Positions 3,632 through 32,121 of a stretch of DNA of 32,121 nt are shown here, in pieces. The translations under genes and the position numbers were made by a program. Under the pieces are notes generated by a model that worked only from the letters and a program-made list of their open reading frames with translations, was not told the origin of the DNA and did no database searches. Where the stretch lies: NCBI GenBank assembly GCA_023485405.1, contig JAMCZU010000027.1, forward strand, positions 1-32,121, read 5' to 3'. The first letter of the stretch is position 1. Every line of letters begins with the position of its first letter. The stretch is from Patescibacteria group bacterium. GTDB taxonomy: Bacteria; Patescibacteriota; UBA1384; UBA12157; JAENIV01.

Positions 3632-4486
3632 ATGGATGAGCGAAAAGTAGCGGAAGTAATGGTTATTAGCGCGATGGCATTCAAGCAGCCAACTCGGGTA
3701 GTGAGGCATTTCTTGAATTTGGCTGATACGGTGCCAGGTATTACAGACGATCTTATCCACGACGCCGTGGGTCAGCTTCAACACAAACTGGGCGAAAGTC
3801 CAACTGATGCTCCAAGATTGTTGCTTGGAATCGAGCTTGTCTTGGCTATGTGTGGTCAAGACGAAAAGCAAGTGGCAATAACCTCTAGAGTTGAAAAGGT
3901 GTTGAAGCAATATGCCAAAATTCTGACGGAGATGATCTTAGAAAACGATAGTGTCACCTTTGCTAATTGCGGAAGATTCAAACCATTTTCTAGAGATGAT
4001 TATGAGTTGGTGCTGGACATTGCCCAGTTTATCGCGGTCAGTGCTGGGCAAGATTCTGCCGGGGCAGTTAACACTTTGATTCGGACGATTGTGGCGAGAG
4101 CGCCGGAAGAAGTATTGGAGGCAAAAATCTGCCAACTTGAGTCGCCTGATTTTTGTAGAGATAGAAAAGAAAACCGTGAAAGGTTTCACGAGGTTTTTGC
4201 TGTAGAGTATCTGAAGCGATCTTATGGCATGTGGCAAGTACTGATGCGACTAAGGCATCCTCAGTCGACGAAATTGGTAACTCGAGACGATTGGGAGCAT
4301 TTTGCTTCGATGCATGAAGAACAACTTTGGGAGACACTCAGACGGATTTGTGAAGTAACTGAGCCAACCTCCAGTCAGTTGGTAAAACGTCAACTTATTA
4401 CCAGTGAGTTGATGAGGCGATATCATGATGATAATTTAGTAATAAATTGGTATAGAGAGAATTTTCCTCATTTAGTCAGGATTTAA
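3632..4486 (+). CDS. Uncharacterised helical protein, 284 aa
   Basis: I do not recognise this protein. It is soluble, rich in charged helices and without signal peptide, membrane segment or an obvious catalytic motif. The cysteines are scattered and not in a metal-binding pattern. The start at 3632 is fixed by 'AGGAGG' and a strong promoter. It is a monocistronic unit with its own promoter, a leader hairpin over the Shine-Dalgarno sequence and a perfect GC-rich terminator, unlike its neighbours. Its codon use looks more GC-rich than the flanking rpsO and DHH genes, which hints at separate origin. The 23-bp palindrome upstream may be its operator. Function cannot be inferred from the sequence alone. 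Confidence 0.7.
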   Translation: MDERKVAEVMVISAMAFKQPTRVVRHFLNLADTVPGITDDLIHDAVGQLQHKLGESPTDAPRLLLGIELVLAMCGQDEKQVAITSRVEKVLKQYAKILTEMILENDSVTFANCGRFKPFSRDDYELVLDIAQFIAVSAGQDSAGAVNTLIRTIVARAPEEVLEAKICQLESPDFCRDRKENRERFHEVFAVEYLKRSYGMWQVLMRLRHPQSTKLVTRDDWEHFASMHEEQLWETLRRICEVTEPTSSQLVKRQLITSELMRRYHDDNLVINWYRENFPHLVRI

Positions 4487-11807: not shown

Positions 11808-12003
11808 CAAAAAAGCGCAATCGGAAATCGGCCCAAATTTACTTTAAATTATTGACCGTTCGTTGCGCTTTTTTGTTATAGACTCGAGTCCGTCCCTACC
11901 TTCCGGAAATCGGAGAGTAAGAATGGGAGTCTGTTCCAATCCCTTCCTTGTGAGGTGCTTGGACAACCTGCTTTCGCGAGTTATCCACAATTTGTTAAGG
12001 GAT
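11808..12003 (-). ncRNA. Candidate structured non-coding RNA, about 196 nt
   Basis: A minus-strand promoter (TTGACA, 17 bp, TATGAT) and a minus-strand terminator hairpin followed by TTTTTT bound a gene-free stretch. Inside, the 5' end AATCCCTT pairs exactly with AAGGGATT 60 bases on, enclosing GGATAAC/GTTGTCC. A second domain pairs TTCTTAC with GTAGGGA and AGACTC with GAGTCT. Three of these pairs are G-U only when read on the minus strand (they would be A-C on the plus strand), which supports minus-strand transcription. The final stem is 13 bp (plus-strand 11808-11820 with 11863-11875) and ends in the U-run. I do not recognise a known family: it lacks the conserved strings of RNase P, tmRNA and SRP RNA. 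6S RNA cannot be excluded. Confidence 0.7.
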
Positions 12004-12009
12004 TATAAT

Positions 12010-12038
12010 ATCATAATATATTAATTTTAGTTTGTCAA
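12010..12038 (-). promoter_or_regulatory. Promoter of the minus-strand ncRNA
   Basis: On the minus strand, TTGACA (plus 12033-12038), 17-bp spacer, TATGAT (plus 12010-12015). This is near consensus, with predicted transcription start around 12003. Confidence 0.8.
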
Positions 12039-12121
12039 GCGTCTAACCAGTTATTGATGAATTAAGATAGAAAAGTTATGAAATTTTTTTATCGAATAAC
12101 CTTAAATATTAGTAAAGCGCA

Positions 12122-12191
12122 GATCCCGCAGACGACGCTTCTGCAATAACAGGACGTAGTCCGTTTTGCAGAAAGGAGTTATGCTGGGATC
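12122..12191. ncRNA. 70-nt nested hairpin, unknown class
   Basis: GATCCCGCA pairs with TGC-T-GGGATC (9 bp, one bulge). After an 8-by-8 internal loop, TTCTGCAA pairs with TTGCAGAA. The helix continues through AAC/GTT to GGAC-GTA-GTCC. Transcribed strand is not settled because there are no wobble pairs. A weak plus promoter (TTGATG, 17 bp, TATGAA at 12077-12082) could drive it. The internal loop holds AAGGAG followed by ATG at 12181 and 12 codons, so a leader peptide is possible. Confidence 0.5.
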
Positions 12192-12232
12192 AATAGCTAA
12201 ACCAGTAATTAGTGACTAAAATATAAAAAAGC

Positions 12233-12261
12233 TTGACGTAAAGTCAAAAATAGTGTAGACT
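12233..12261 (+). promoter_or_regulatory. Promoter of the LuxR-type HTH gene
   Basis: TTGACG (12233-12238), 17-bp spacer, TAGACT (12256-12261), followed by a leader of about 35 nt with GAGGAGG before the GTG at 12302. Confidence 0.7.
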
Positions 12262-24230: not shown

Positions 24231-24353
24231 TGGAGAGGTCGCATAAGCAAAGCTTGTTATCCTGACGAATAATAACAACCTGCTGACGCAGAACGTTTTG
24301 TGCTCTTTACAATTAATATTCGTTTGACAACTAGTTTGTGGAGAGGTCGCATA
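24231..24353 (+). repeat. 15-bp direct repeat of the tRNA-Ser 5' end, 108 bp apart
   Basis: 'tggagaggtcgcata' occurs at 24231-24245 and again at 24339-24353, where it forms the 5' end of tRNA-Ser. The intervening 93 bases hold no ORF. Only the upstream copy is correctly placed relative to a -10 element, suggesting an insertion or slippage duplication between promoter and gene. Confidence 0.75.
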
Positions 24354-24429
24354 GTGGCCGAGTGCGCTCGCTTGGAAAGCGAGTAGGTCCGCAAGGGCCT
24401 CGCGAGTTCGAATCTCGCTCTCTCCGCCA
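24340..24429 (+). tRNA. tRNA-Ser (anticodon GGA), CCA encoded
   Basis: The acceptor GGAGAGG pairs with TCTCTCC (one G-U), followed by discriminator G and an encoded CCA. The D stem is CGCA/TGCG, and the anticodon stem CTCGC/GCGAG encloses TTGGAAA (anticodon GGA). A long variable arm 'TAGGTCCGCAAGGGCCTC' is typical of serine tRNA. The T arm is GCGAG-TTCGAAT-CTCGC. The gene decodes UCC and UCU. It is followed by an intrinsic terminator at 24490. Confidence 0.96.
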
Positions 24430-24434
24430 GCAGC

Positions 24435-24610
24435 AGTTTGGAACTTTTCTTAAGGTGTGGAACAGAGTAAAAGATGAGGTAAAAGCGAGAAGAACCGTTT
24501 AAGGTTCTTTTTGTTGTTAAATGGACCCGTTTTGGTGCTTTTCTACAACCACGAGGAAGGGATTCGAACTTTTTTCTAAACCTTGAAAAGTGCCTTAGTT
24601 TGGAACTTTT
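24435..24610. repeat. 14-bp direct repeats and tRNA-like fragment beside recombinase (candidate attachment site)
   Basis: 'agtttggaactttt' occurs at 24435-24448 and 24597-24610, between tRNA-Ser and the 3' end of the serine recombinase gene. Between them, the minus strand of 24549-24569 reads GTTCGAATCCCTTCCTCGTG, which looks like the T-loop and 3' half of another tRNA whose 5' T-stem no longer pairs. This is the expected look of a recombination junction within a tRNA, but no intact partner tRNA is in the window. Confidence 0.5.
24490..24513 (+). terminator. Terminator after tRNA-Ser
   Basis: AAGAACC pairs with GGTTCTT around GTTTAA, followed by a T-run (TTTTT). Confidence 0.85.
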
Positions 24611-24623
24611 TGAGTAGAATGAG

Positions 24624-25994
24624 CTATTTGATGATGAGTTCTCGGTTTTTGAGATAAATTGTGATATTTAAGCAGCCGATCAGCTCTCGTTTTTGATCTT
24701 TGGTGCCATCTTGGAAAATATAGCGTATGAATCCTGAAAGATCGATATTTTGTTCAATTTCGCTGTTATTAGGTTGGTAATCCTGTAAAGTCGTCTTAAT
24801 AACCATGAATTTGTCTAATTCCGGCTTAAGAATCTCTTTGGACCGGATTTCTTTAATTGAAACGTTCTTAAGCAAACAGGAAAGTTGCTCGACAAGTTTT
24901 TCTTCTCTTAGATAACGTTCATTGCAATCAAAGTTGTTAAACTGAGTGCAATGATAGTAAACATACCTTTTAATTTCACCGCTTTTGTAACGTTTGAACT
25001 TTTCTTGGGCGCTAATACCAGAATTACAGCTACCACATCTAAAGATTCTCGTAAAATCAAATTGTTTCGTTCCCGGTTTAGATTTAGGGGCGACTGTCAT
25101 CTTTTTTTGAACTGCATCAAAAAGCTCCCGGGAAATTATTGGTTCGTGCGCTCCTTTATACCACTTACCACTGCCTTGAGGAAATTCAAATAGCGAGCAA
25201 TAAAAAGTATTGTTTAGCATCCTGTAAATGACACTTAAGTTAAGAACATTGCCATTCCTACTTCGCAAATCAGTTTCGTTTTTCAACCATTCATAGACAT
25301 CACGACCGGAATATTTTTCATAGGCTACTTTTTCAAATATCTGTTTAATGATGGGAGCTCTTGCTTTATCAACAAAAACCTTTTTCATCCCTTTGCCCGA
25401 ATAGTGATCGTTTTCGTATCCTAAAGGCGTTAAGTTCGGTCTAAAACCCATTTCGCATTTGGCTCGGAACCCTCTTTTAACATTGATGCCCCTATTGTCG
25501 TTTTCCAATTTTGCCTGCGAGCAGAGAATCATAAGAAGAAATTTATCGTTTGGGCTATTGGTAAAAATTTGACCGTGAGTTCTAATTTCCTTTAGATAGC
25601 CGTTATCCATAAGGTCGATGATTGAACCCAGATCACCGGCATTTCTCGATAACCTGTCTGGTGCCCAACTAATAACTCCTTGGAATAAACCGTTCCTAAT
25701 ATCGGCCATCAATTGATTTAAGACTGGTCTTGTGCCGGTCATTTTGGCTGAATGGCTCTCTTTTTTGATATCAGTTACTAAAAGTCCTTCATTTTGAGCA
25801 TATGTGGCCATTTCTTTGATTTGGGAGTCGATTGAAAGGGCTTGGCGTTCGTCGTCTTCGGTACTTTTGCGCGCGTAAAGACAGTACTGAATTGTCGCTT
25901 TTTCTGCTTGAACTGCCTCAACAGGCCTCCCATTTTCTTCTTTAGGCAGCAAAATTGGCGAAGTATTGGTTAAATTTACTCCTTGAGTGTCCAT
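24624..25994 (-). CDS. Large serine recombinase (site-specific integrase)
   Basis: The N-terminal resolvase domain starts 'IQYCLYARKSTEDDERQALS' with the nucleophilic serine in 'ARKS', followed by 'GVISWAPDRLSRNAGDLGSI'. The recombinase domain ('PLGYEND', 'IIKQIFEKVAYEKYSGRDVY') and a zinc ribbon ('FRCGSCNSGI', 'YYHCTQFNNFDC') follow, then a short helical tail. At about 456 residues it is a compact member of the family that integrates phages and mobile elements. ATG 25994 is preferred to GTG 26000 because AAGGAG lies five bases before it. It lies at the tRNA-Ser end of the accessory block, facing the tRNA, as expected for an element boundary. Its promoter spacer holds a CCCC/GGGG inverted repeat. 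Confidence 0.95.
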   Translation of the reverse strand: MDTQGVNLTNTSPILLPKEENGRPVEAVQAEKATIQYCLYARKSTEDDERQALSIDSQIKEMATYAQNEGLLVTDIKKESHSAKMTGTRPVLNQLMADIRNGLFQGVISWAPDRLSRNAGDLGSIIDLMDNGYLKEIRTHGQIFTNSPNDKFLLMILCSQAKLENDNRGINVKRGFRAKCEMGFRPNLTPLGYENDHYSGKGMKKVFVDKARAPIIKQIFEKVAYEKYSGRDVYEWLKNETDLRSRNGNVLNLSVIYRMLNNTFYCSLFEFPQGSGKWYKGAHEPIISRELFDAVQKKMTVAPKSKPGTKQFDFTRIFRCGSCNSGISAQEKFKRYKSGEIKRYVYYHCTQFNNFDCNERYLREEKLVEQLSCLLKNVSIKEIRSKEILKPELDKFMVIKTTLQDYQPNNSEIEQNIDLSGFIRYIFQDGTKDQKRELIGCLNITIYLKNRELIIK

Positions 25995-26025
25995 TTTCAC
26001 TCCTTTACCTTATAGGTCAAGGGAG

Positions 26026-26053
26026 ATGATACCGCCCCTGTTGGGGAAGTCAA
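26026..26053 (-). promoter_or_regulatory. Recombinase promoter with inverted repeat in the spacer
   Basis: On the minus strand, TTGACT (plus 26048-26053), 16-bp spacer, TATCAT (plus 26026-26031). The spacer contains CCCC-AACA-GGGG (plus 26035-26046), a possible repressor site. Confidence 0.6.
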
Positions 26054-26166
26054 GGCCTAATTTTTTGAAATCAGCCATAATGCCATTAAACCAGTAAAAA
26101 GCTTCCAAATTCATTTTACTTATGTTAAAATCAGAGTAGAAATTGCACATTATTTAATTTGGCCTA

Positions 26167-26301
26167 ACCCTTAAGTTTTCTTAAGGCATGGCAATAAAAC
26201 CTATAAGAGATTTTAAGCTCGTCGTCAGAGCACTCTTATAGGTCGTATCTCGAAAGGGATATGGGTGATCGCAAGATCATCGCTGGCGGCGGGCTTTTTG
26301 T
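26167..26301 (+). ncRNA. Structured RNA with two GNRA-loop hairpins
   Basis: Successive elements on the plus strand are a CCTTAAG-TTTT-CTTAAGG hairpin; an 11-bp stem ACCTATAAGAG/CTCTTATAGGT (26199-26243) enclosing GCTC/GAGC; TATCTC-GAAA-GGGATA (26246-26261); GTGATC-GCAA-GATCAT (26265-26280); then a GC-rich stretch and TTTTT. Two pairs are G-U on the plus strand only, supporting that strand. A TGTTAAAAT extended -10 lies near 26118. Family not recognised; it could be a small RNA or the leader of gene 26332. Confidence 0.6.
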
Positions 26302-26331
26302 ATTCCGACGTCCTAAATTCGATCAAAAAAA

Positions 26332-26730
26332 ATGAATATTGAAACCGTAGAACAATTTATCAAAAGAAAAAACGATTCATTCACAAAGAAAAATACTATT
26401 AATGTCAAAGATATTGGCAGAAACGGTAGGCATTTTTTTGTGCGAGAAGCTTGGACATTTATGCCTCAAGGAAACATGTCGGATAAGGTTTTTGTTATTG
26501 AGCGTCTAAGAAAAGATTCATATGAGGGCGAATTGTCTTATAAAGATAGTTGGAACAGGGGTGATATTGAGTATCGAGTTGGATATTATATTGTTGGTAA
26601 AATTGGTCGAGCCAACGGACGCTGGATTTGGGGTCAATTCTGTCCCATCATCCCAGCGGAAGATTTTATTAAATTATTAGAAAAAGCCAAAGAAGAAGGC
26701 ACAATAAAATTTGATAGAAAGGAAACATAA
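26332..26730 (+). CDS. Uncharacterised small protein, 132 aa (mobile-element cargo)
   Basis: I do not recognise this protein. It is soluble and mixed in charge, with a central aromatic-rich segment ('VREAWTFMPQGNMSDKVFVI', 'NGRWIWGQFCPIIPAEDF') and no obvious catalytic motif. There is no clear Shine-Dalgarno sequence before ATG 26332; a structured RNA ends about 30 bases upstream. Its TAA overlaps the next ATG by one base (TAATG), so the two genes are translationally coupled. Both run opposite to the recombinase and packaging genes that flank them. Confidence 0.65.
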   Translation: MNIETVEQFIKRKNDSFTKKNTINVKDIGRNGRHFFVREAWTFMPQGNMSDKVFVIERLRKDSYEGELSYKDSWNRGDIEYRVGYYIVGKIGRANGRWIWGQFCPIIPAEDFIKLLEKAKEEGTIKFDRKET

Positions 26731-27290
26731 TGAGCGAACAAAAAAAGGGGATGTCAACTTTAGCAAAATTCGGCATTGGTTGCGGAGGCTTTATAGTTTT
26801 AATCATTATTATCGCTGTGATTTCTTTCAGTGGATCTTCAACTACGACACCAAGCTCTAATGGCAATCAAAACCAAAATAAACAAACGGAAGCTAAAAAA
26901 GAGTTTGCCCTCGGAGAGACAATTAATCTTAAAGACCATCAATTAGTGGTGAGCAATTTAGATGCCAATTATCAAACCGGTAATCCATATGAAAAGCCCC
27001 AAAGCCCAGATAACAGTTTTGTAATAGTAGATATTGCTGTTACCAATACAGGAAATAGGGATTTATTGGTTAATGATTGGGGTTTCAAATTGGAAGATGA
27101 AACGGGTACTCAAAGAAACACGTCATGGTTTTCTGGCGTTGATGGGCTATTACAATCAGTTACTCTTTCGCCGAATGGTAAAACATCGGGAAAGCTGGCT
27201 TTTGAAGCTAAAACGGGTAGTAGCAAATTAATCCTCCACTATTCTGGAAATATATCAAGCGGTGGTGAAATAACAATTAAATTAAAATAA
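26730..27290 (+). CDS. DUF4352-like membrane-anchored protein
   Basis: This 186-residue protein has a short basic N-terminus, one membrane helix (about residues 14-34, 'IGCGGFIVLIIIIAVISFSG'), a Ser/Thr/Asn/Gln-rich linker, and an extracellular beta-sandwich with 'FVIVDIAVTNTGNRDLLVND' and 'LSPNGKTSGKLAFEA'. This layout matches DUF4352, a telomere-protein-unrelated immunoglobulin-like family of Gram-positive and CPR secreted proteins and phage-encoded surface proteins. The ligand is unknown. Being coupled to gene 26332 within a mobile element, it might be a surface-modifying cargo such as superinfection exclusion; that is speculation from context. Confidence 0.8.
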   Translation: MSEQKKGMSTLAKFGIGCGGFIVLIIIIAVISFSGSSTTTPSSNGNQNQNKQTEAKKEFALGETINLKDHQLVVSNLDANYQTGNPYEKPQSPDNSFVIVDIAVTNTGNRDLLVNDWGFKLEDETGTQRNTSWFSGVDGLLQSVTLSPNGKTSGKLAFEAKTGSSKLILHYSGNISSGGEITIKLK

Positions 27291-27303
27291 TCCATAAATC
27301 TTA

Positions 27304-28785
27304 TTATCTTGGACCGGCGTACCAAGGAGGTGGACCGTCGATAATAGTTAATCTTGGCTCAGATTTGGAGTTTTCTTCAATAATTTTTATCACAACCATG
27401 GTGAAGGCGTCGACCATGTCGTCATGAGGCACGCTGCCAAAATATACCATTTGATCAACAAATTCCACGGCGCCATATCTAGGAATAAGAACAACGCCAT
27501 TAAATATTACGGGAATTGTTCGTTTTAGACGGATATCTTTTCCCTCATGAATCGGTACTTCCTCAGCTTCTACTCCCTCATGTCTTAACTGTTCTATAAT
27601 CGAGCTTTGATAACCAACTGATTCGATATATTTGGTAATATATTCACCGGAATTTGCGTCCCGATCTAGTGTTTTTAATCTTTCAATACTTTCTCTGAAA
27701 TCTAACTTTTCGTTGATAATATATGGCAAGACGAAGATCCTCATATTCTCGTCATAACCATAAACTCTACAGATTATAACCGCAGTGTAATCATTTTTCC
27801 CACCTTTTTTAAGAGCCAGATCGACTCCACAATAGGTGCCCCGGTAGGGCATATCAGGATCGTCGTTTCTGGGTAGCTCGTCATAACGGTGAATCCATTC
27901 GGGATGAATTATTTGATCAACCTCAGGCAAAATGTGGAGTAAATATTCTTGTTCGAAAACGCGATCGCCAACACTATGACGTAATTCTTCAATTGATTCT
28001 GGATTTGGATACATCCCCGGCCACATACATTTTTCTTCCTCATCAATTAAAGGAAATTCTTTATATAAACCACCTCGCTTATTTTTTAGTATTTCCTCAT
28101 TTAACCGACGAACTAGACAATCTTCGTGTAATAGATTTGATATTACAATAATCTTGGTATTTAAATTACCCATTGGTACTATATCTCGGCAAAACCAGTT
28201 GAACATTTTATCTCTATTATCCGGGTTTTTCACACCCTCTAAATCCTCAAGATCGTCGCAAACTACAACATCGGGTCGGTGAGAACCGTGAATCATTCCG
28301 CGTAAACTCTGACCAGAGGAAACACACATTATTCTTGCTTTGTATCTTGCAACAACCACGGTTAACGCACCCCATTTGTCGTCGCCGTAAAGTGGCCCAA
28401 AATCTTTTTTTAATAACTCATTATTTTCAAGTTCTTCTCGGATATTTGCCATTCGCATTTCTGCTTGTTGTTGATCTTTGCAAATGATTAAAATAAATTT
28501 CTTCTTCTGCTCGCCAATAATACTCCATATAGGGTAAACCAAATCCATCATTGTGGTCTTACCTGATTGACGGAAACTAACAATTAAGGCAAGTTTAATC
28601 GACTCATCGCGGGCAATTTCTAAGATTTCTTTTTGGAAAGGAGCGATTTCAAATTGAGGGTCACGAGGGAGATAAATATAGAAAAACCAATAGGGGCTTT
28701 GCATTGCTAAATGGATTCTAAAGTTCCTATCTTTAATAATCCGTTCGTTTATTTCTTCATTTGGCGTTTTCATCCTTGTCCTCAT
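27304..28785 (-). CDS. Phage terminase large subunit
   Basis: The 493-residue packaging motor has an N-terminal ATPase with Walker A 'VSFRQSGKTT' (69-78) and Walker B 'VVVCDDLED' (173-181), a coupling segment 'KIIVISNLLHED', and a C-terminal RNase H-like nuclease with 'GTYCGVDLALKKGGKNDYTA' (Asp322) and 'HDDMVDAF'. All key residues are present, so the gene looks intact. It overlaps the TerS-like gene (29 bases from the first ATG, 17 from the second at 28773; the choice is uncertain). No portal or capsid gene follows; instead the next gene is on the other strand. Confidence 0.93.
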   Translation of the reverse strand: MRTRMKTPNEEINERIIKDRNFRIHLAMQSPYWFFYIYLPRDPQFEIAPFQKEILEIARDESIKLALIVSFRQSGKTTMMDLVYPIWSIIGEQKKKFILIICKDQQQAEMRMANIREELENNELLKKDFGPLYGDDKWGALTVVVARYKARIMCVSSGQSLRGMIHGSHRPDVVVCDDLEDLEGVKNPDNRDKMFNWFCRDIVPMGNLNTKIIVISNLLHEDCLVRRLNEEILKNKRGGLYKEFPLIDEEEKCMWPGMYPNPESIEELRHSVGDRVFEQEYLLHILPEVDQIIHPEWIHRYDELPRNDDPDMPYRGTYCGVDLALKKGGKNDYTAVIICRVYGYDENMRIFVLPYIINEKLDFRESIERLKTLDRDANSGEYITKYIESVGYQSSIIEQLRHEGVEAEEVPIHEGKDIRLKRTIPVIFNGVVLIPRYGAVEFVDQMVYFGSVPHDDMVDAFTMVVIKIIEENSKSEPRLTIIDGPPPWYAGPR

Positions 28786-29215
28786 CTTTCATTTCTTGTA
28801 GGTCAGGTACCGGAACCATGACCGGTTCTGGCGCTGCTAATTCCAAAGCTTTTTTAATCAAATCTTCTTGCTCAGCTGTTAAAGACAGGGGTTCATTACT
28901 TTTAGCCGACACTTCAAGTTTATTAATAAATTTGGGATTTCTGTGATTTAACCAGTAGAAAACTGCTTGGAGATTGCCATTTTGAATTGCGGCCAGTAGT
29001 TGACTTTCGGCCAAGTCTGAAACAATACCGGCGCCTTCTTCGATAGCCACTTCGACGCTCAAAGCAAATTCCTCATCCTCATGAATCCAGCGATAGTATG
29101 TCGATCGACCAACCTCACATTTCTTACAAGCGATTTCGACAATTGGTGTTTGTTTGAGCTGCTCGATGATCTGATTTTTTTGTTTTTGTTGACGGTGTTC
29201 AATAGTATTACTCAT
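28757..29215 (-). CDS. Terminase small subunit-like HTH protein
   Basis: The 152-residue protein has an N-terminal HTH ('VEIACKKCEVGRSTYYRWIH', residues 26-45) of the phBC6A51/TerS type, a helical oligomerisation region containing 'LQAVFYWLNHRNPKFINK', and an acidic tail 'DLQEMKDEDKDENAK'. TerS proteins recognise the packaging site and load DNA on TerL. 'AAAGGGG' precedes ATG 29215. The overlap with terL downstream and the 13-base gap from the methyltransferase gene upstream indicate one transcript. Confidence 0.82.
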   Translation of the reverse strand: MSNTIEHRQQKQKNQIIEQLKQTPIVEIACKKCEVGRSTYYRWIHEDEEFALSVEVAIEEGAGIVSDLAESQLLAAIQNGNLQAVFYWLNHRNPKFINKLEVSAKSNEPLSLTAEQEDLIKKALELAAPEPVMVPVPDLQEMKDEDKDENAK

Positions 29216-29228
29216 TTCAAACCCCTTT

Positions 29229-30563
29229 CTAATTCATTTTTATTGGTTTAGTGTGGGTTAGTATCTCGATGCGTCGTAGGATTACCTGCGCATAAGTTGG
29301 ACTTTTCTCAATTAGATAACAACGGCGTTTCATTTTAAGCGCGGCGGCTGCCGTGCTGCCTGAACCCCCAAAGGGTTCAATAATTAAGTCATTTCTTCGA
29401 GTTAAAACCTTGATGTATGGTATGAGAATTTCCAACGGTTTTACGCCGAAAATGATCGATTGCCCCGAAGATTTTTCGTCAGCTGCATTATATTCAATGA
29501 AATCTGTGGGACAAATCGCTTTTCCTTTTCCGTAATTTTCCCAGTGTGGTTTTCCGGAAATTGCGTAAAGAGCGGTAGAATACTCTTCCTGAAGCCCATC
29601 TTTTTCAATTTCTAGGTTGTACTTGATATCTTGACCCTTAGAAGCTCCAACCATGGCTATATCATGCTTTGAAAAGAACCTATATTTTGAAGCAAAAGCC
29701 TGATTGCGATTAGGCAAATGCCAGACAATCATGTTTTTTACGGACCAATGTTTCTCAATTTCGCCCCAAATGTTTCGGAGGTTGCGCCAGTTTTCGTAGA
29801 CTATAATGCTAAATGATTCTTTTTGAATCTTAGCGACATTTTTCATCCAAAGTTCGGTAAAGTTTTCCGGCAAAACGTCAGTCTCTAAATATCTTCTATT
29901 TCGTTTCGAGCCAAAACCCAAAGTTGGTTTACCGTGACGCTTGGCGTTTAAGTAATCGAGCTGATATGGGGGATCGGTGAGGCAAAGATCGGCGCGTTCG
30001 TTCCCCATAAGTTTTAAGACATCGGCTTCAATGGTGCTGTCGCCGCAAAGTAATTTGAATTGATTCTCACCGATAGTGTAAATATCTCCTTTTTGCACTG
30101 TGATTTTTTGAATGTCTAATTTTTTCAATTCTTTTTCCAAATCCCAATTTTCCGGTGTATTTTCAATGCCAAAGATGTCGTCAAGTGCCTCTGAATCAAA
30201 CCCAATATCAGTGAGAAGATTCTCATCAAAAGCCTTAAGCAAATCAAAATCAAACTCTCCTAAATTTTTATTGAGACGAATATTAAGTTCTTTCTCTTTT
30301 TCAATATCTGGAATTTGGATGTAAACTACCGGAACTTCGGTATAGCCCAAATCCTTAGCTATTTTTAACCTGAAATGGCCGCCAATTACAATGTTTTTGC
30401 GATTCTCGGCACCATTTACCAGTAGGGCATCGACCAGCCCATACTTTTTGATACTCTCGGTCAGATCACTGACTGCCTTGTCTGACCACCGGCGTGGATT
30501 GTATACGCTCGGTTTTAAGTCTTTAACCGGCACATACACAACCTTCAGTTGTTCTTGAGGCAT
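29229..30563 (-). CDS. ParB-domain DNA methyltransferase (phage-type)
   Basis: The 444-residue protein has an N-terminal ParB/Srx-like domain (about 10-105, 'YNPRRWSDKAVSDLTESIKK' and 'IVIGGHFRLKIAKDLGY'). The methyltransferase follows, with motif IV 'DLCLTDPPYQLDY' (DPPY 197-200) upstream of the AdoMet motif 'EPFGGSGSTAAAA' (396-408), the beta-class order. DPPY implies N6-adenine or N4-cytosine methylation. Such ParB-MTase fusions are common next to terminase genes in phages and may mark DNA against host restriction. Expression appears controlled by a leader with an intrinsic terminator and by a palindrome spanning the Shine-Dalgarno sequence and start codon. Confidence 0.92.
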   Translation of the reverse strand: MPQEQLKVVYVPVKDLKPSVYNPRRWSDKAVSDLTESIKKYGLVDALLVNGAENRKNIVIGGHFRLKIAKDLGYTEVPVVYIQIPDIEKEKELNIRLNKNLGEFDFDLLKAFDENLLTDIGFDSEALDDIFGIENTPENWDLEKELKKLDIQKITVQKGDIYTIGENQFKLLCGDSTIEADVLKLMGNERADLCLTDPPYQLDYLNAKRHGKPTLGFGSKRNRRYLETDVLPENFTELWMKNVAKIQKESFSIIVYENWRNLRNIWGEIEKHWSVKNMIVWHLPNRNQAFASKYRFFSKHDIAMVGASKGQDIKYNLEIEKDGLQEEYSTALYAISGKPHWENYGKGKAICPTDFIEYNAADEKSSGQSIIFGVKPLEILIPYIKVLTRRNDLIIEPFGGSGSTAAAALKMKRRCYLIEKSPTYAQVILRRIEILTHTKPIKMN

Positions 30564-30571
30564 AATGCCTC
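30557..30571 (-). promoter_or_regulatory. Palindrome covering ribosome binding site and start codon of ParB-MTase
   Basis: On the minus strand, GAGGCAT-T-ATGCCTC: the left arm contains most of the Shine-Dalgarno GGAGG and the right arm starts with the initiation ATG. A GCGAGC-TTT-GCTCGC hairpin lies 10 bases upstream (plus 30582-30596). Confidence 0.6.
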
Positions 30572-30621
30572 CTTTCTTTTGGCGAGCAAAGCTCGCAATT
30601 ATTACTTACTTTTTAAAACAC

Positions 30622-30667
30622 AAAAAAATCCGATGTTTTCATTCGGGCCTCAAAGGGCCTCATCGGA
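30622..30667 (-). terminator. Intrinsic terminator in the ParB-MTase leader (attenuator)
   Basis: On the minus strand TCCGATG pairs with CATCGGA, enclosing GGCC repeats, and is followed by TTTTTTT. It lies between the strong promoter at 30733-30762 and the gene start at 30563, so most transcripts would end here unless the hairpin is prevented. Confidence 0.8.
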
Positions 30668-30732
30668 CTTCAAAGAGTCTTAATTTAATATTTTATTGTT
30701 GAAATTACGAGTTATCTTCTAACCTTGCTTAC

Positions 30733-30762
30733 ATTATACCATATTTCTTGTTATATTGTCAA
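30733..30762 (-). promoter_or_regulatory. Strong promoter of the MTase-TerS-TerL operon
   Basis: On the minus strand TTGACA (plus 30757-30762), 18-bp spacer, TATAAT (plus 30733-30738) preceded by TGG. Both hexamers match consensus fully. The leader to ATG 30563 is about 163 nt. Confidence 0.85.
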
Positions 30763-30877
30763 ATCTTGGGGCATTAAATCTTATAGCCATACCAAATAGT
30801 TGATTGTAATTGACAAATATAATAGGTGTAATTACAGGTATTAAATTACAATAAATGACAAGAACTGACAGAAGGTA

Positions 30878-30906
30878 TTGACAAAATATATATAGTATGC
30901 TATGCT
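30878..30906 (+). promoter_or_regulatory. Promoter of the structured leader and gene 31188
   Basis: TTGACA (30878-30883), 17-bp spacer, TATGCT (30901-30906) preceded by TGC (extended -10). Predicted transcription start is about 30913. Confidence 0.75.
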
Positions 30907-30912
30907 TATTCA

Positions 30913-31187
30913 TTGCCGTAAAGTTTTTGCTGGTCTTCTCACTGTTAAGGACCAAAGCTCTGGCGAGGACAGAGTCTCCGATATTAAATCGGAGGAGACG
31001 TAAGATTGACCCTTGTGGTCTATATCCCAAGTTTCTCCTTTAAGGATGGATCGGTTAAGCTTTATGCGAATGGTTTAAAGTAACAAAATCGGGAATAAAT
31101 TTAAGATTATAAGCCCGCGTTATTACTTTAAGGCATCCACTTGGGAAGGGCTGGGTGCCCAGTGAGCCGAAATAAACTTTCGACTTA
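30913..31187 (+). ncRNA. Long structured leader or ncRNA upstream of gene 31188
   Basis: Stem-loops in series on the plus strand are TGGTCT/GGACCA, CTCTG/CAGAG, CTCCGAT/ATCGGAG, GACC/GGTC, a long hairpin pairing 31075-31084 with 31119-31131 (TTAAAGT/ACTTTAA) enclosing CGGG/CCCG, CTGGG/CCCAG and CGAAA/TTTCG. One pair is a G-U only on the plus strand. No ORF of note occupies it. It resembles no RNA family I can name; RNase P and tmRNA signatures are absent. Confidence 0.55.
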
Positions 31188-31646
31188 GTGGAGCATCTTA
31201 TCGCAAAGGTGGTGAAAACAATACAACCAGTCGAAAAACGAATAAAGCAAAGAATGGACAAGGCGTTTGCCATAATCCAACGTCTTAACGTCCGTATGCC
31301 AGTAAAAGGCAGACGTGACGAAAAGATAATCAAGGAGTTATGGAACGACTTGTTTCTTCTCAAAGAGGACGTTCTTCGTGAATACAAGCCAGCTTTCAAG
31401 AGGGCGAAACGGCTCTTTGATGAAGGGTGGCGCATCGAAGATACATCCAAAGAAGAGTATTACGGGGTTAAATGCACCCTGTATCACAACGGCGACACTT
31501 ACGAAGTCTACGATGACGGCTGCAATGTGTTTGGGTACTGGGAGCAAATCTTCAAGCACCTGGGCATAGAGGGCATCAAGTCCGGCTTCTATGGCATCGC
31601 CTGTGTCCGCTATCTCTTCGACCTCACGGCTGAGGAGAAGAAGTAG
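31188..31646 (+). CDS. Uncharacterised protein, up to 152 aa
   Basis: I do not recognise this protein. The N-terminal half is basic and helical ('KVVKTIQPVEKRIKQRMDKA', 'FKRAKRLFDEGW'), and the C-terminal half is an alpha/beta-looking domain ('GVKCTLYHNGDTYEVYDDGC', 'SGFYGIACVRYLFDL'). The start is uncertain: GTG 31188 has no Shine-Dalgarno sequence and lies at the end of the structured leader; GTG 31209 or 31212 near 'AAAGG' are alternatives. Base composition is visibly more GC-rich than the neighbours, suggesting transfer. It has its own promoter and a strong terminator. It may be the last gene of the accessory block. Confidence 0.6.
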   Translation: MEHLIAKVVKTIQPVEKRIKQRMDKAFAIIQRLNVRMPVKGRRDEKIIKELWNDLFLLKEDVLREYKPAFKRAKRLFDEGWRIEDTSKEEYYGVKCTLYHNGDTYEVYDDGCNVFGYWEQIFKHLGIEGIKSGFYGIACVRYLFDLTAEEKK

Positions 31647-31653
31647 TGGCTTT

Positions 31654-31684
31654 GGGGCTCGGTTTCTGCCGTGCCCCTTTAATT
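31654..31684 (+). terminator. Terminator of gene 31188
   Basis: GGGGC-T-CGG pairs with CCG-T-GCCCC around TTTCTG, then TTTAATTT. Confidence 0.85.
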
Positions 31685-31737
31685 TAAAAAATGTTGTAGC
31701 TATAATAATATTAAGAGGGAAACTATTGGGAGGCAAA

Positions 31738-32121
31738 ATGCTTTCGATTTTAGAAAAATTAGGGCTATCGGAAAAAGAAGCTAAAGTTTATTTAGCTACT
31801 TTAGAATTAGCCCAAGATACAGTTCAAAACATTGCTAAAAAAGCAGGTGTTAATCGTCCGACCACCTACTTTATTTTAAAGAAATTAATGCAATTAGGTC
31901 TAATTAGTACTCTTGAGAAGGGTAAAAAAACGTTGTTTATCGCTGAAAATCCTAAAGAATTGGAGAATTTATTAGATGAGAGGGTGCGAGATATTGAACG
32001 TGGTAGAAAAGAATTAAAAGACAATATGAATCAGTTGCTAGCGATTTATAATATTAAGCAAGGAAAACCGATAGTGAAATATTTTGAAGGGCTTGATGGT
32101 TTAGAAGCAATGGATAGATAT
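31738..32121 (+). CDS. TrmB-family transcriptional regulator (3' partial)
   Basis: This gene was missed by the ORF track because it runs off the window edge. It reads MLSILEKLGLSEKEAKVYLA, then 'VNRPTTYFILKKLMQLGLIS' and 'ENPKELENLLDERVRDIERG': the winged-helix TrmB domain followed by the start of a coiled-coil and a sensor region. Members in CPR and archaea regulate sugar or other metabolic genes; the ligand is unknown. 'GGGAGG' lies six bases before ATG 31738 and a TATAAT at 31701-31706 is a likely -10 with a poor -35. At least 128 codons are present; the family usually has 230-260. Confidence 0.88.
   Translation, partial: MLSILEKLGLSEKEAKVYLATLELAQDTVQNIAKKAGVNRPTTYFILKKLMQLGLISTLEKGKKTLFIAENPKELENLLDERVRDIERGRKELKDNMNQLLAIYNIKQGKPIVKYFEGLDGLEAMDRY

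What the first reader, a model, noticed from the sequence alone, without database searches (positions are those of the whole stretch)
30878..31684. 275-nt structured leader followed by an orphan gene
At least six stem-loops lie in series between a good promoter and a GC-richer orphan gene without a Shine-Dalgarno sequence. Either the RNA is the functional product and the ORF is part of it, or the leader replaces normal initiation. The unit has its own terminator and sits at the far side of the mobile block.
Basis: partly seen in the sequence, partly recalled or inferred. Interest (0 to 1): 0.65.

Follow-up and report, generated by a model that had tools for sequence, protein, structure and literature searches.

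The report
Structured orphan gene in ultra-small bacterium
A short stretch with its own start and stop signals encodes a protein seen nowhere else, and its whole messenger RNA, not only the front part, is predicted to fold unusually tightly; it is a striking single case of a gene type common in this bacterium, and no relative was found that could show what the folding is for.

Summary
The unit is real in outline: promoter (30878-30906), structured leader, GC-rich orphan ORF (31188-31646), 3' hairpin (31654-31677). Two points change its meaning. First, the leader alone is not exceptional: it folds with z about -3, but 15 of 56 promoter-leader-ORF units in the same genome reach z <= -3. Second, the strongest folding signal lies inside the ORF (z -6.8 at 31280-31519) and covers the whole transcript (z -8.1). 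It survives shuffles that keep protein, codon counts and near-constant dinucleotides (z about -4.5), and is stronger than in any of 96 random genes. The ORF still looks coding: codon-position GC 0.53/0.29/0.60 (p 1e-7), and the codon usage of this genome's GC-rich genes in one frame only. Coding signal rises from ATG 31254, so GTG 31188 is probably not the start. Gene and leader are singletons in every collection searched. The neighbouring mobile block is a Patescibacteria-wide element; none of 80 other copies carries the unit. Best reading: a lineage-specific protein gene with a structured mRNA; RNA control of translation is inferred. A dual RNA-and-protein role is possible. An RNA-only product is unlikely.

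The parts
30878..30906 (+). sigma-70-type promoter, TTGACA-17-TATGCT with TG extension
   Evidence: 10 of 12 consensus positions
30913..31069 (+). leader domain 1: multibranch fold closed by 30917-30936 / 31048-31066, with inner hairpins 30957-30975, 30976-30994 and 31008-31020
   Evidence: predicted; closing helix probability 0.93-0.95 in the full transcript, but 0.03-0.99 in truncated ones
31006..31083 (+). possible 25-codon upstream ORF, TTG start, 8 nt after GGAGGAG; the SD lies in a predicted stem
   Evidence: sequence and ORF listing; no test of translation
31074..31132 (+). leader hairpin 2, TTTAAAGTAA / TTACTTTAAG with inner CGGG / CCCG
   Evidence: pair probability 0.97-0.99
31132..31232 (+). 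initiation region with two mutually exclusive helices: A 31132-31138 / 31153-31159, B 31149-31154 / 31227-31232; SD-like AAGGTGGTGA at 31206-31215 is mostly paired
   Evidence: constrained folding, B favoured over A by 2.6 kcal/mol once 31240 is transcribed
31188..31646 (+). orphan ORF, 152 codons from GTG 31188; codon statistics favour ATG 31254 (130 aa) as the start
   Evidence: codon-position GC, one-frame codon usage, cumulative coding score
31220..31649 (+). structured part of the ORF, including helices 31526-31536 / 31558-31568 and 31607-31619 / 31637-31649 (the last holds the stop codon)
   Evidence: z -5.7 and -6.8 in 240-nt windows; synonymous and dinucleotide controls; helices
31654..31677 (+). 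3' hairpin followed by TTTAATTT, a weak intrinsic terminator
   Evidence: pair probability 0.99; not called by the scan

Best explanation
An independent transcription unit that encodes a lineage-restricted (orphan) protein of about 130 aa, one of a group of GC-rich, mostly unassigned genes in this Patescibacteria genome. Its 5' leader and coding sequence form one extensively folded mRNA. The most likely role of the fold is in cis: the leader holds the ribosome-binding and start region in competing helices (A or B) so that initiation depends on refolding, and the folded coding region stabilises the message or slows its translation. Shown: promoter match, coding signal, excess predicted folding beyond composition, codon use and protein. 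Inferred: that the structure forms in the cell, that it acts on translation or stability, and which start codon is used.
For: Promoter. Coding: GC by codon position 0.53/0.29/0.60, chi-square p 1e-7; codon score in frame z 5.5 with the other sense frames negative; open frame in 0.04% of mononucleotide shuffles; score rises from 31254. Structure: whole unit z -8.1, ORF z -5 with synonymous shuffles, -4.3 to -4.6 when dinucleotides are also held. Similar layout (promoter, leader, GC-rich ORF, GC-rich hairpin) in other units of the genome, with leader z averaging -1.9. Start region paired or in competition.
Against: No homolog, so no covariation and no dN/dS: everything about structure is single-sequence prediction. 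The first 22 codons from GTG 31188 do not look coding. Domain 1 is unstable in some truncated transcripts (P 0.03 at end 31262). Excess folding rises with third-position GC in other genes too (rho -0.36), so part of the signal may be a by-product of what makes these genes GC-rich. The orphan was examined because it looked structured.
Confidence: 0.5

Rival explanations
1. Dual-function RNA: the roughly 775-nt transcript works as a folded RNA (scaffold or regulator) and also encodes the protein, with selection on both.
For: Folding runs through the whole unit including the stop codon and 3' hairpin; ORF structure exceeds synonymous and dinucleotide-preserving controls and all 96 random genes.
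Against: No homolog or covariation; weaker but similar excess in other GC-rich genes of the genome (L053:3597 z -3.2, L031:13958 z -2.3) suggests a class trend rather than a special RNA.
Confidence: 0.17
2. No selected RNA function: the folding is a by-product of foreign, GC-rich origin or of the mutation process that made these genes, and the leader is an ordinary 5' UTR.
For: Third-position GC correlates with excess folding in 132 ORFs of relatives; structured leaders are common here; the leader has no homolog in 380 phylum genomes.
Against: Shuffles hold protein, codon counts and nearly all dinucleotides, also locally; recA and the orphan at 3632 show no excess under the same test.
Confidence: 0.25
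3. Long noncoding structured RNA, like GOLLD or ROOL; the open frame is incidental.
For: Size (about 775 nt), GC-rich and highly folded in an AT-rich genome, next to a phage-like block.
Against: Codon-position bias and one-frame codon usage; open frame expected in 0.04% of mononucleotide shuffles; no Rfam match at E up to 10 beyond two chance hits.
Confidence: 0.06
4. Cargo of the adjacent mobile element, with the leader as part of the element's regulation.
For: It lies just beyond the divergent promoter of the element's ParB-methyltransferase gene, where other copies carry varied cargo.
Against: None of 80 copies from other Patescibacteria encodes the protein or matches the leader by BLAST or covariance model; codon composition differs from the element's genes. 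The element's right boundary was not found.
Confidence: 0.15

Closest known systems
cis-regulatory structured leaders (riboswitch-like or attenuator-like 5' UTRs)
   Same: Long folded leader between promoter and ORF; competing helices at the start region; possible upstream ORF.
   Different: No Rfam family matches; no ligand, no conservation; folding continues through the coding region.
GC-rich orphan genes of this genome (for example L031:13958, L053:3597, L067:10977)
   Same: Own promoter, leader, third-position GC 0.56-0.63, GC-rich hairpin after the stop, mostly no recognised relative; mild to moderate excess folding.
   Different: Unrelated in sequence; the window's unit has the strongest ORF folding of the set and an unusually long leader.
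Large structured bacterial RNAs (GOLLD, ROOL, OLE; PMC12286853)
   Same: GOLLD and ROOL are long, highly folded and carried by phages and prophages; GOLLD members often exceed 800 nt, near this unit's size.
   Different: Not matched by Rfam models; carries a coding-like ORF over 59% of its length; single known copy.

Membership tests
Known Rfam RNA family (riboswitch, ribozyme, large ncRNA) | covariance-model score above the curated cut-off | tested here: not met
   No match on 30700-31760 at gathering score; at E <= 10 only two chance hits, 14.8 and 12 bits against cut-offs 114 and 70.
Conserved structured leader | covarying base pairs in homologs | not testable with these tools
   No homolog of the leader by blastn or covariance model in 380 phylum genomes or 80 element loci.
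Protein-coding gene | codon-position bias and frame-specific codon usage | tested here: met
   GC 0.53/0.29/0.60, p 1e-7; in-frame score z 5.5.
Protein-coding gene | homologs under purifying selection | tested here: inconclusive
   No homolog found; hits at E 0.008-0.05 were fragments in unrelated proteins, the best in a MurB-like reductase.
GC-rich orphan gene class of this genome | third-position GC far above the genome mean, own promoter and 3' hairpin | tested here: met
   GC3 0.60 against 0.30 +/- 0.07; promoter; hairpin.
Component of the ParB-MTase/terminase/serine-recombinase element | present in other copies of the element | tested here: not met
   Absent from 80 loci.

The most novel reading that the evidence does not exclude
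A single transcript of about 775 nt that is at once a compactly folded functional RNA and the message of a new protein, with selection for pairing across the whole coding sequence, as the extreme member of a Patescibacteria class of GC-rich genes whose coding sequences are selected to fold.
Probability: 0.15. Interest if true: 0.7.

Novelty: new member of a known kind. Interest (0 to 1): 0.33.

Why it matters
Genes with no known relatives are common in ultra-small Patescibacteria and almost nothing is known about how they arise or are controlled. If the tie between high third-position GC and folded coding sequence holds, it would give a measurable signature of this gene class and a testable idea about how such genes are kept or born. 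For this single locus alone, the value is modest because no relative allows an evolutionary test.

Tried and rejected
(1) Known RNA: Rfam at gathering and relaxed thresholds, nothing. (2) Homologs of the protein: Pfam, PHROGs, NCBIfam, PDB sequences, phages, plasmids, viral and genome contigs, 195 relatives and 380 phylum genomes; all negative or chance. The best weak hit was a MurB motif in a 320-aa frame. (3) Homologs of the leader: blastn and a single-sequence covariance model; hits of 20-35 nt lie in unrelated coding or AT-rich DNA. Two exact leader words in viral contigs gave none and one, the latter without other similarity. (4) Paralogs in the own genome: none. (5) Structure of the protein: AlphaFold without alignment, pLDDT 62, helices then a beta hairpin; no fold match at E <= 0.001. 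(6) Unit as part of the mobile element: rejected as a conserved component. (7) Attachment-site repeats to set the element's right end: no shared word of 10 or more bases and no second copy of the tRNA end. (8) Antisense ORFs 31055-31450 and 31338-31736: scored below the sense frame.

Full report
WHAT WAS CLAIMED. A 275-nt leader with at least six stem-loops between a good promoter and a GC-richer orphan gene without a Shine-Dalgarno sequence, with its own terminator, at the far side of a mobile block.

WHERE IT IS. The window is one whole contig (G000:C20, 32,121 bp) of a 0.83-Mb genome, 95% complete. A genome of the same order has a contig whose length equals that of a record titled Candidatus Berkelbacteria (88,438 bp), so this is a Patescibacteria (CPR) genome near that group. 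That step rests on matching contig lengths.

ANATOMY. The promoter TTGACA-17-TATGCT at 30878-30906 matches 10 of 12 consensus positions with TG before the -10. The leader up to GTG 31188 folds at -87.5 kcal/mol, z -3.3, better than all 200 dinucleotide shuffles. It is not six hairpins in a row. Helices 30917-30936 / 31048-31066 close a multibranch domain with three inner hairpins, followed by a long hairpin 31074-31132 and then the start region. There, helix A (GGCATCC / GGGTGCC) and helix B (GGCTGG / CCAGTC, 31149-31154 / 31227-31232) exclude each other; A dominates when the transcript ends at 31170-31187 and B once it reaches 31240, with 2.6 kcal/mol between them. Domain 1 also loses its closing helix in the transcript ending at 31262 (P 0.03), so the predicted fold depends on length. 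A 25-codon TTG frame at 31006-31083 follows GGAGGAG at 8 nt, but that motif is in a stem.

IS THE LEADER UNUSUAL? Only mildly. In the same genome 56 ORFs of at least 100 codons have a strong promoter 60-420 nt upstream. Their leaders average z -1.9; 15 reach -3 or lower; this one scores -2.9 in that test. Its length (275 nt) is in the upper part: the median is 135 and 15 of 56 are 250 nt or more. Lack of SD is also ordinary: by a crude test 61% of 589 ORFs lack an SD-like 4-mer before their longest start.

THE SURPRISE IS IN THE ORF. In a scan of 240-nt windows the lowest values in this region fall inside the ORF: 31220-31459 z -5.7 and 31280-31519 z -6.8, 30 shuffles each. The whole unit folds at -270.9 kcal/mol, z -8.1 with 20 shuffles. 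Shuffling synonymous codons, which keeps the protein and codon counts, still gives z about -5. Keeping dinucleotides nearly constant as well gives -4.6, or -4.3 when swaps are local. Of 96 random genes of at least 152 codons in this genome the mean is -0.46, sd 1.17, lowest -3.1. Other GC-rich genes of the genome tend the same way (L031:13958 -2.3, L053:3597 -3.2, L067:10977 -1.7 to -2.6), while recA and the orphan at 3632 do not. In 132 ORFs from relatives third-position GC correlates with excess folding, rho -0.36; some of the lowest values come from one odd GC-rich stretch of L101. So the ORF is the extreme of a trend, not a lone exception. A genome-wide scan covered 1,249 of 6,614 windows; 20 were below -5, so such values are uncommon but not unique.

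IS THE ORF A GENE? Probably. GC by codon position is 0.53/0.29/0.60 (chi-square p 1e-7). A codon model trained on ten other GC-rich genes of this genome scores the frame at +0.22 per codon and the other two sense frames at about -0.25; no mononucleotide shuffle of 2,000 reached it, z 5.5. The cumulative score reaches its minimum just before ATG 31254 and rises from there; the first 22 codons from GTG 31188 look non-coding. The likely product is therefore about 130 aa, MDKAFAIIQRLNVRMPVKGRRDEK... to ...LTAEEKK. An SD-like AAGGTGGTGA (one mismatch to AAGGAGGTGA) stands before an in-frame ATA at 31221; a start there cannot be excluded.

RELATIVES. None. Family libraries, PDB, phages, plasmids, viral contigs, genome contigs, 195 relatives and 380 phylum genomes gave no credible hit; the weak ones were checked and dismissed. 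The contig scans use exact peptide words, so they find close relatives only. Leader DNA and a single-sequence covariance model of domain 1 gave only the window itself. A structure prediction without alignment has pLDDT 62 and no fold match.

THE MOBILE BLOCK. The ParB-methyltransferase (29229-30563) is 61-71% identical to proteins in 80 loci; every titled group is Patescibacteria and the rest are titled only bacterium. A small terminase-like gene is found beside it in 77, a terminase large subunit in 41 and the serine recombinase in 48. Many loci are cut short, so these are minimum counts. None of the 80 carries the orphan or its leader. The unit is thus next to the element, not a conserved part of it. 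Whether it lies inside this particular insertion is open because the right end was not found.

MECHANISM. Most likely the fold acts in cis on initiation and message stability. Promoter match, coding signal and excess predicted folding are shown by computation; that the fold exists in the cell and regulates anything is inference. A dual RNA-and-protein role is not excluded (about 0.15-0.17). A purely noncoding RNA is unlikely (0.06). A by-product of GC-rich origin without RNA function is a serious rival (0.25).

VERDICT. It is filed as a new member of a known kind, a lineage-specific gene with a structured mRNA, with modest interest because it is a singleton.

Noticed in passing
window 26161-26281; L104 5441-5557; L136 11714-11828; L158 11985-12103: LOOT RNA (RF03000, called an sRNA in Rfam) lies divergently and close upstream of the serine recombinase of the Patescibacteria element in these four loci. 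It occurs in 8 of 24 element loci scanned besides the window, against 9 copies in 61 whole genomes and none in 14 control genomes. This suggests that LOOT belongs to this mobile element.
   Followed up: partly
window 24340-30563; L127-L206: Patescibacteria-wide element: ParB-N6/N4 methyltransferase, terminase small and large subunits, serine recombinase, variable cargo (restriction-modification genes in L103 and L104); in the window and L103 the recombinase end lies about 200 nt from a tRNA gene.
   Followed up: partly
window 30563-30762, minus strand: Perfect promoter (TTGACA-18-TATAAT) for the methyltransferase, then in its 5' UTR a hairpin TCCGATG...CATCGGA followed by TTTTTTT: an attenuator-like arrangement.
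   Followed up: no
window 12001-12240, plus strand: Intergenic stretch with the lowest z of the non-overlapping window scan (-6.6, 30 shuffles) and no Rfam hit; contains CAGATCCCGCAGACGACGCTTCTGC...GCAGAAAGGAGTTATGCTGGGATC.
   Followed up: no
L053 3267-3597 and 4904-5170: Leaders of two GC-rich genes hold repeated short hairpins each followed by GGATTA or similar (e.g. TATCCGTAAGGATTGAGG, TATCCATTAAGGATTAGG).
   Followed up: no
own genome, e.g. L030:14539, L031:13958 and 14780, L053:3597 and 5170, L067:10977; window 3632, 12302, 23918: A group of genes with far higher third-position GC than the genome mean (or GC-rich overall), often with own promoter and GC-rich hairpin, mostly without recognised relatives; excess mRNA folding in several.
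   Followed up: partly
L101 705-6342: Run of GC-rich ORFs with extreme folding (synonymous-shuffle z -3 to -11.6), perhaps inverted repeats or a foreign insert.
   Followed up: no
L031 upstream of 18721 (minus strand): Leader of a MetK-like gene folds well (z -3.2); not checked against SAM riboswitch families.
   Followed up: no
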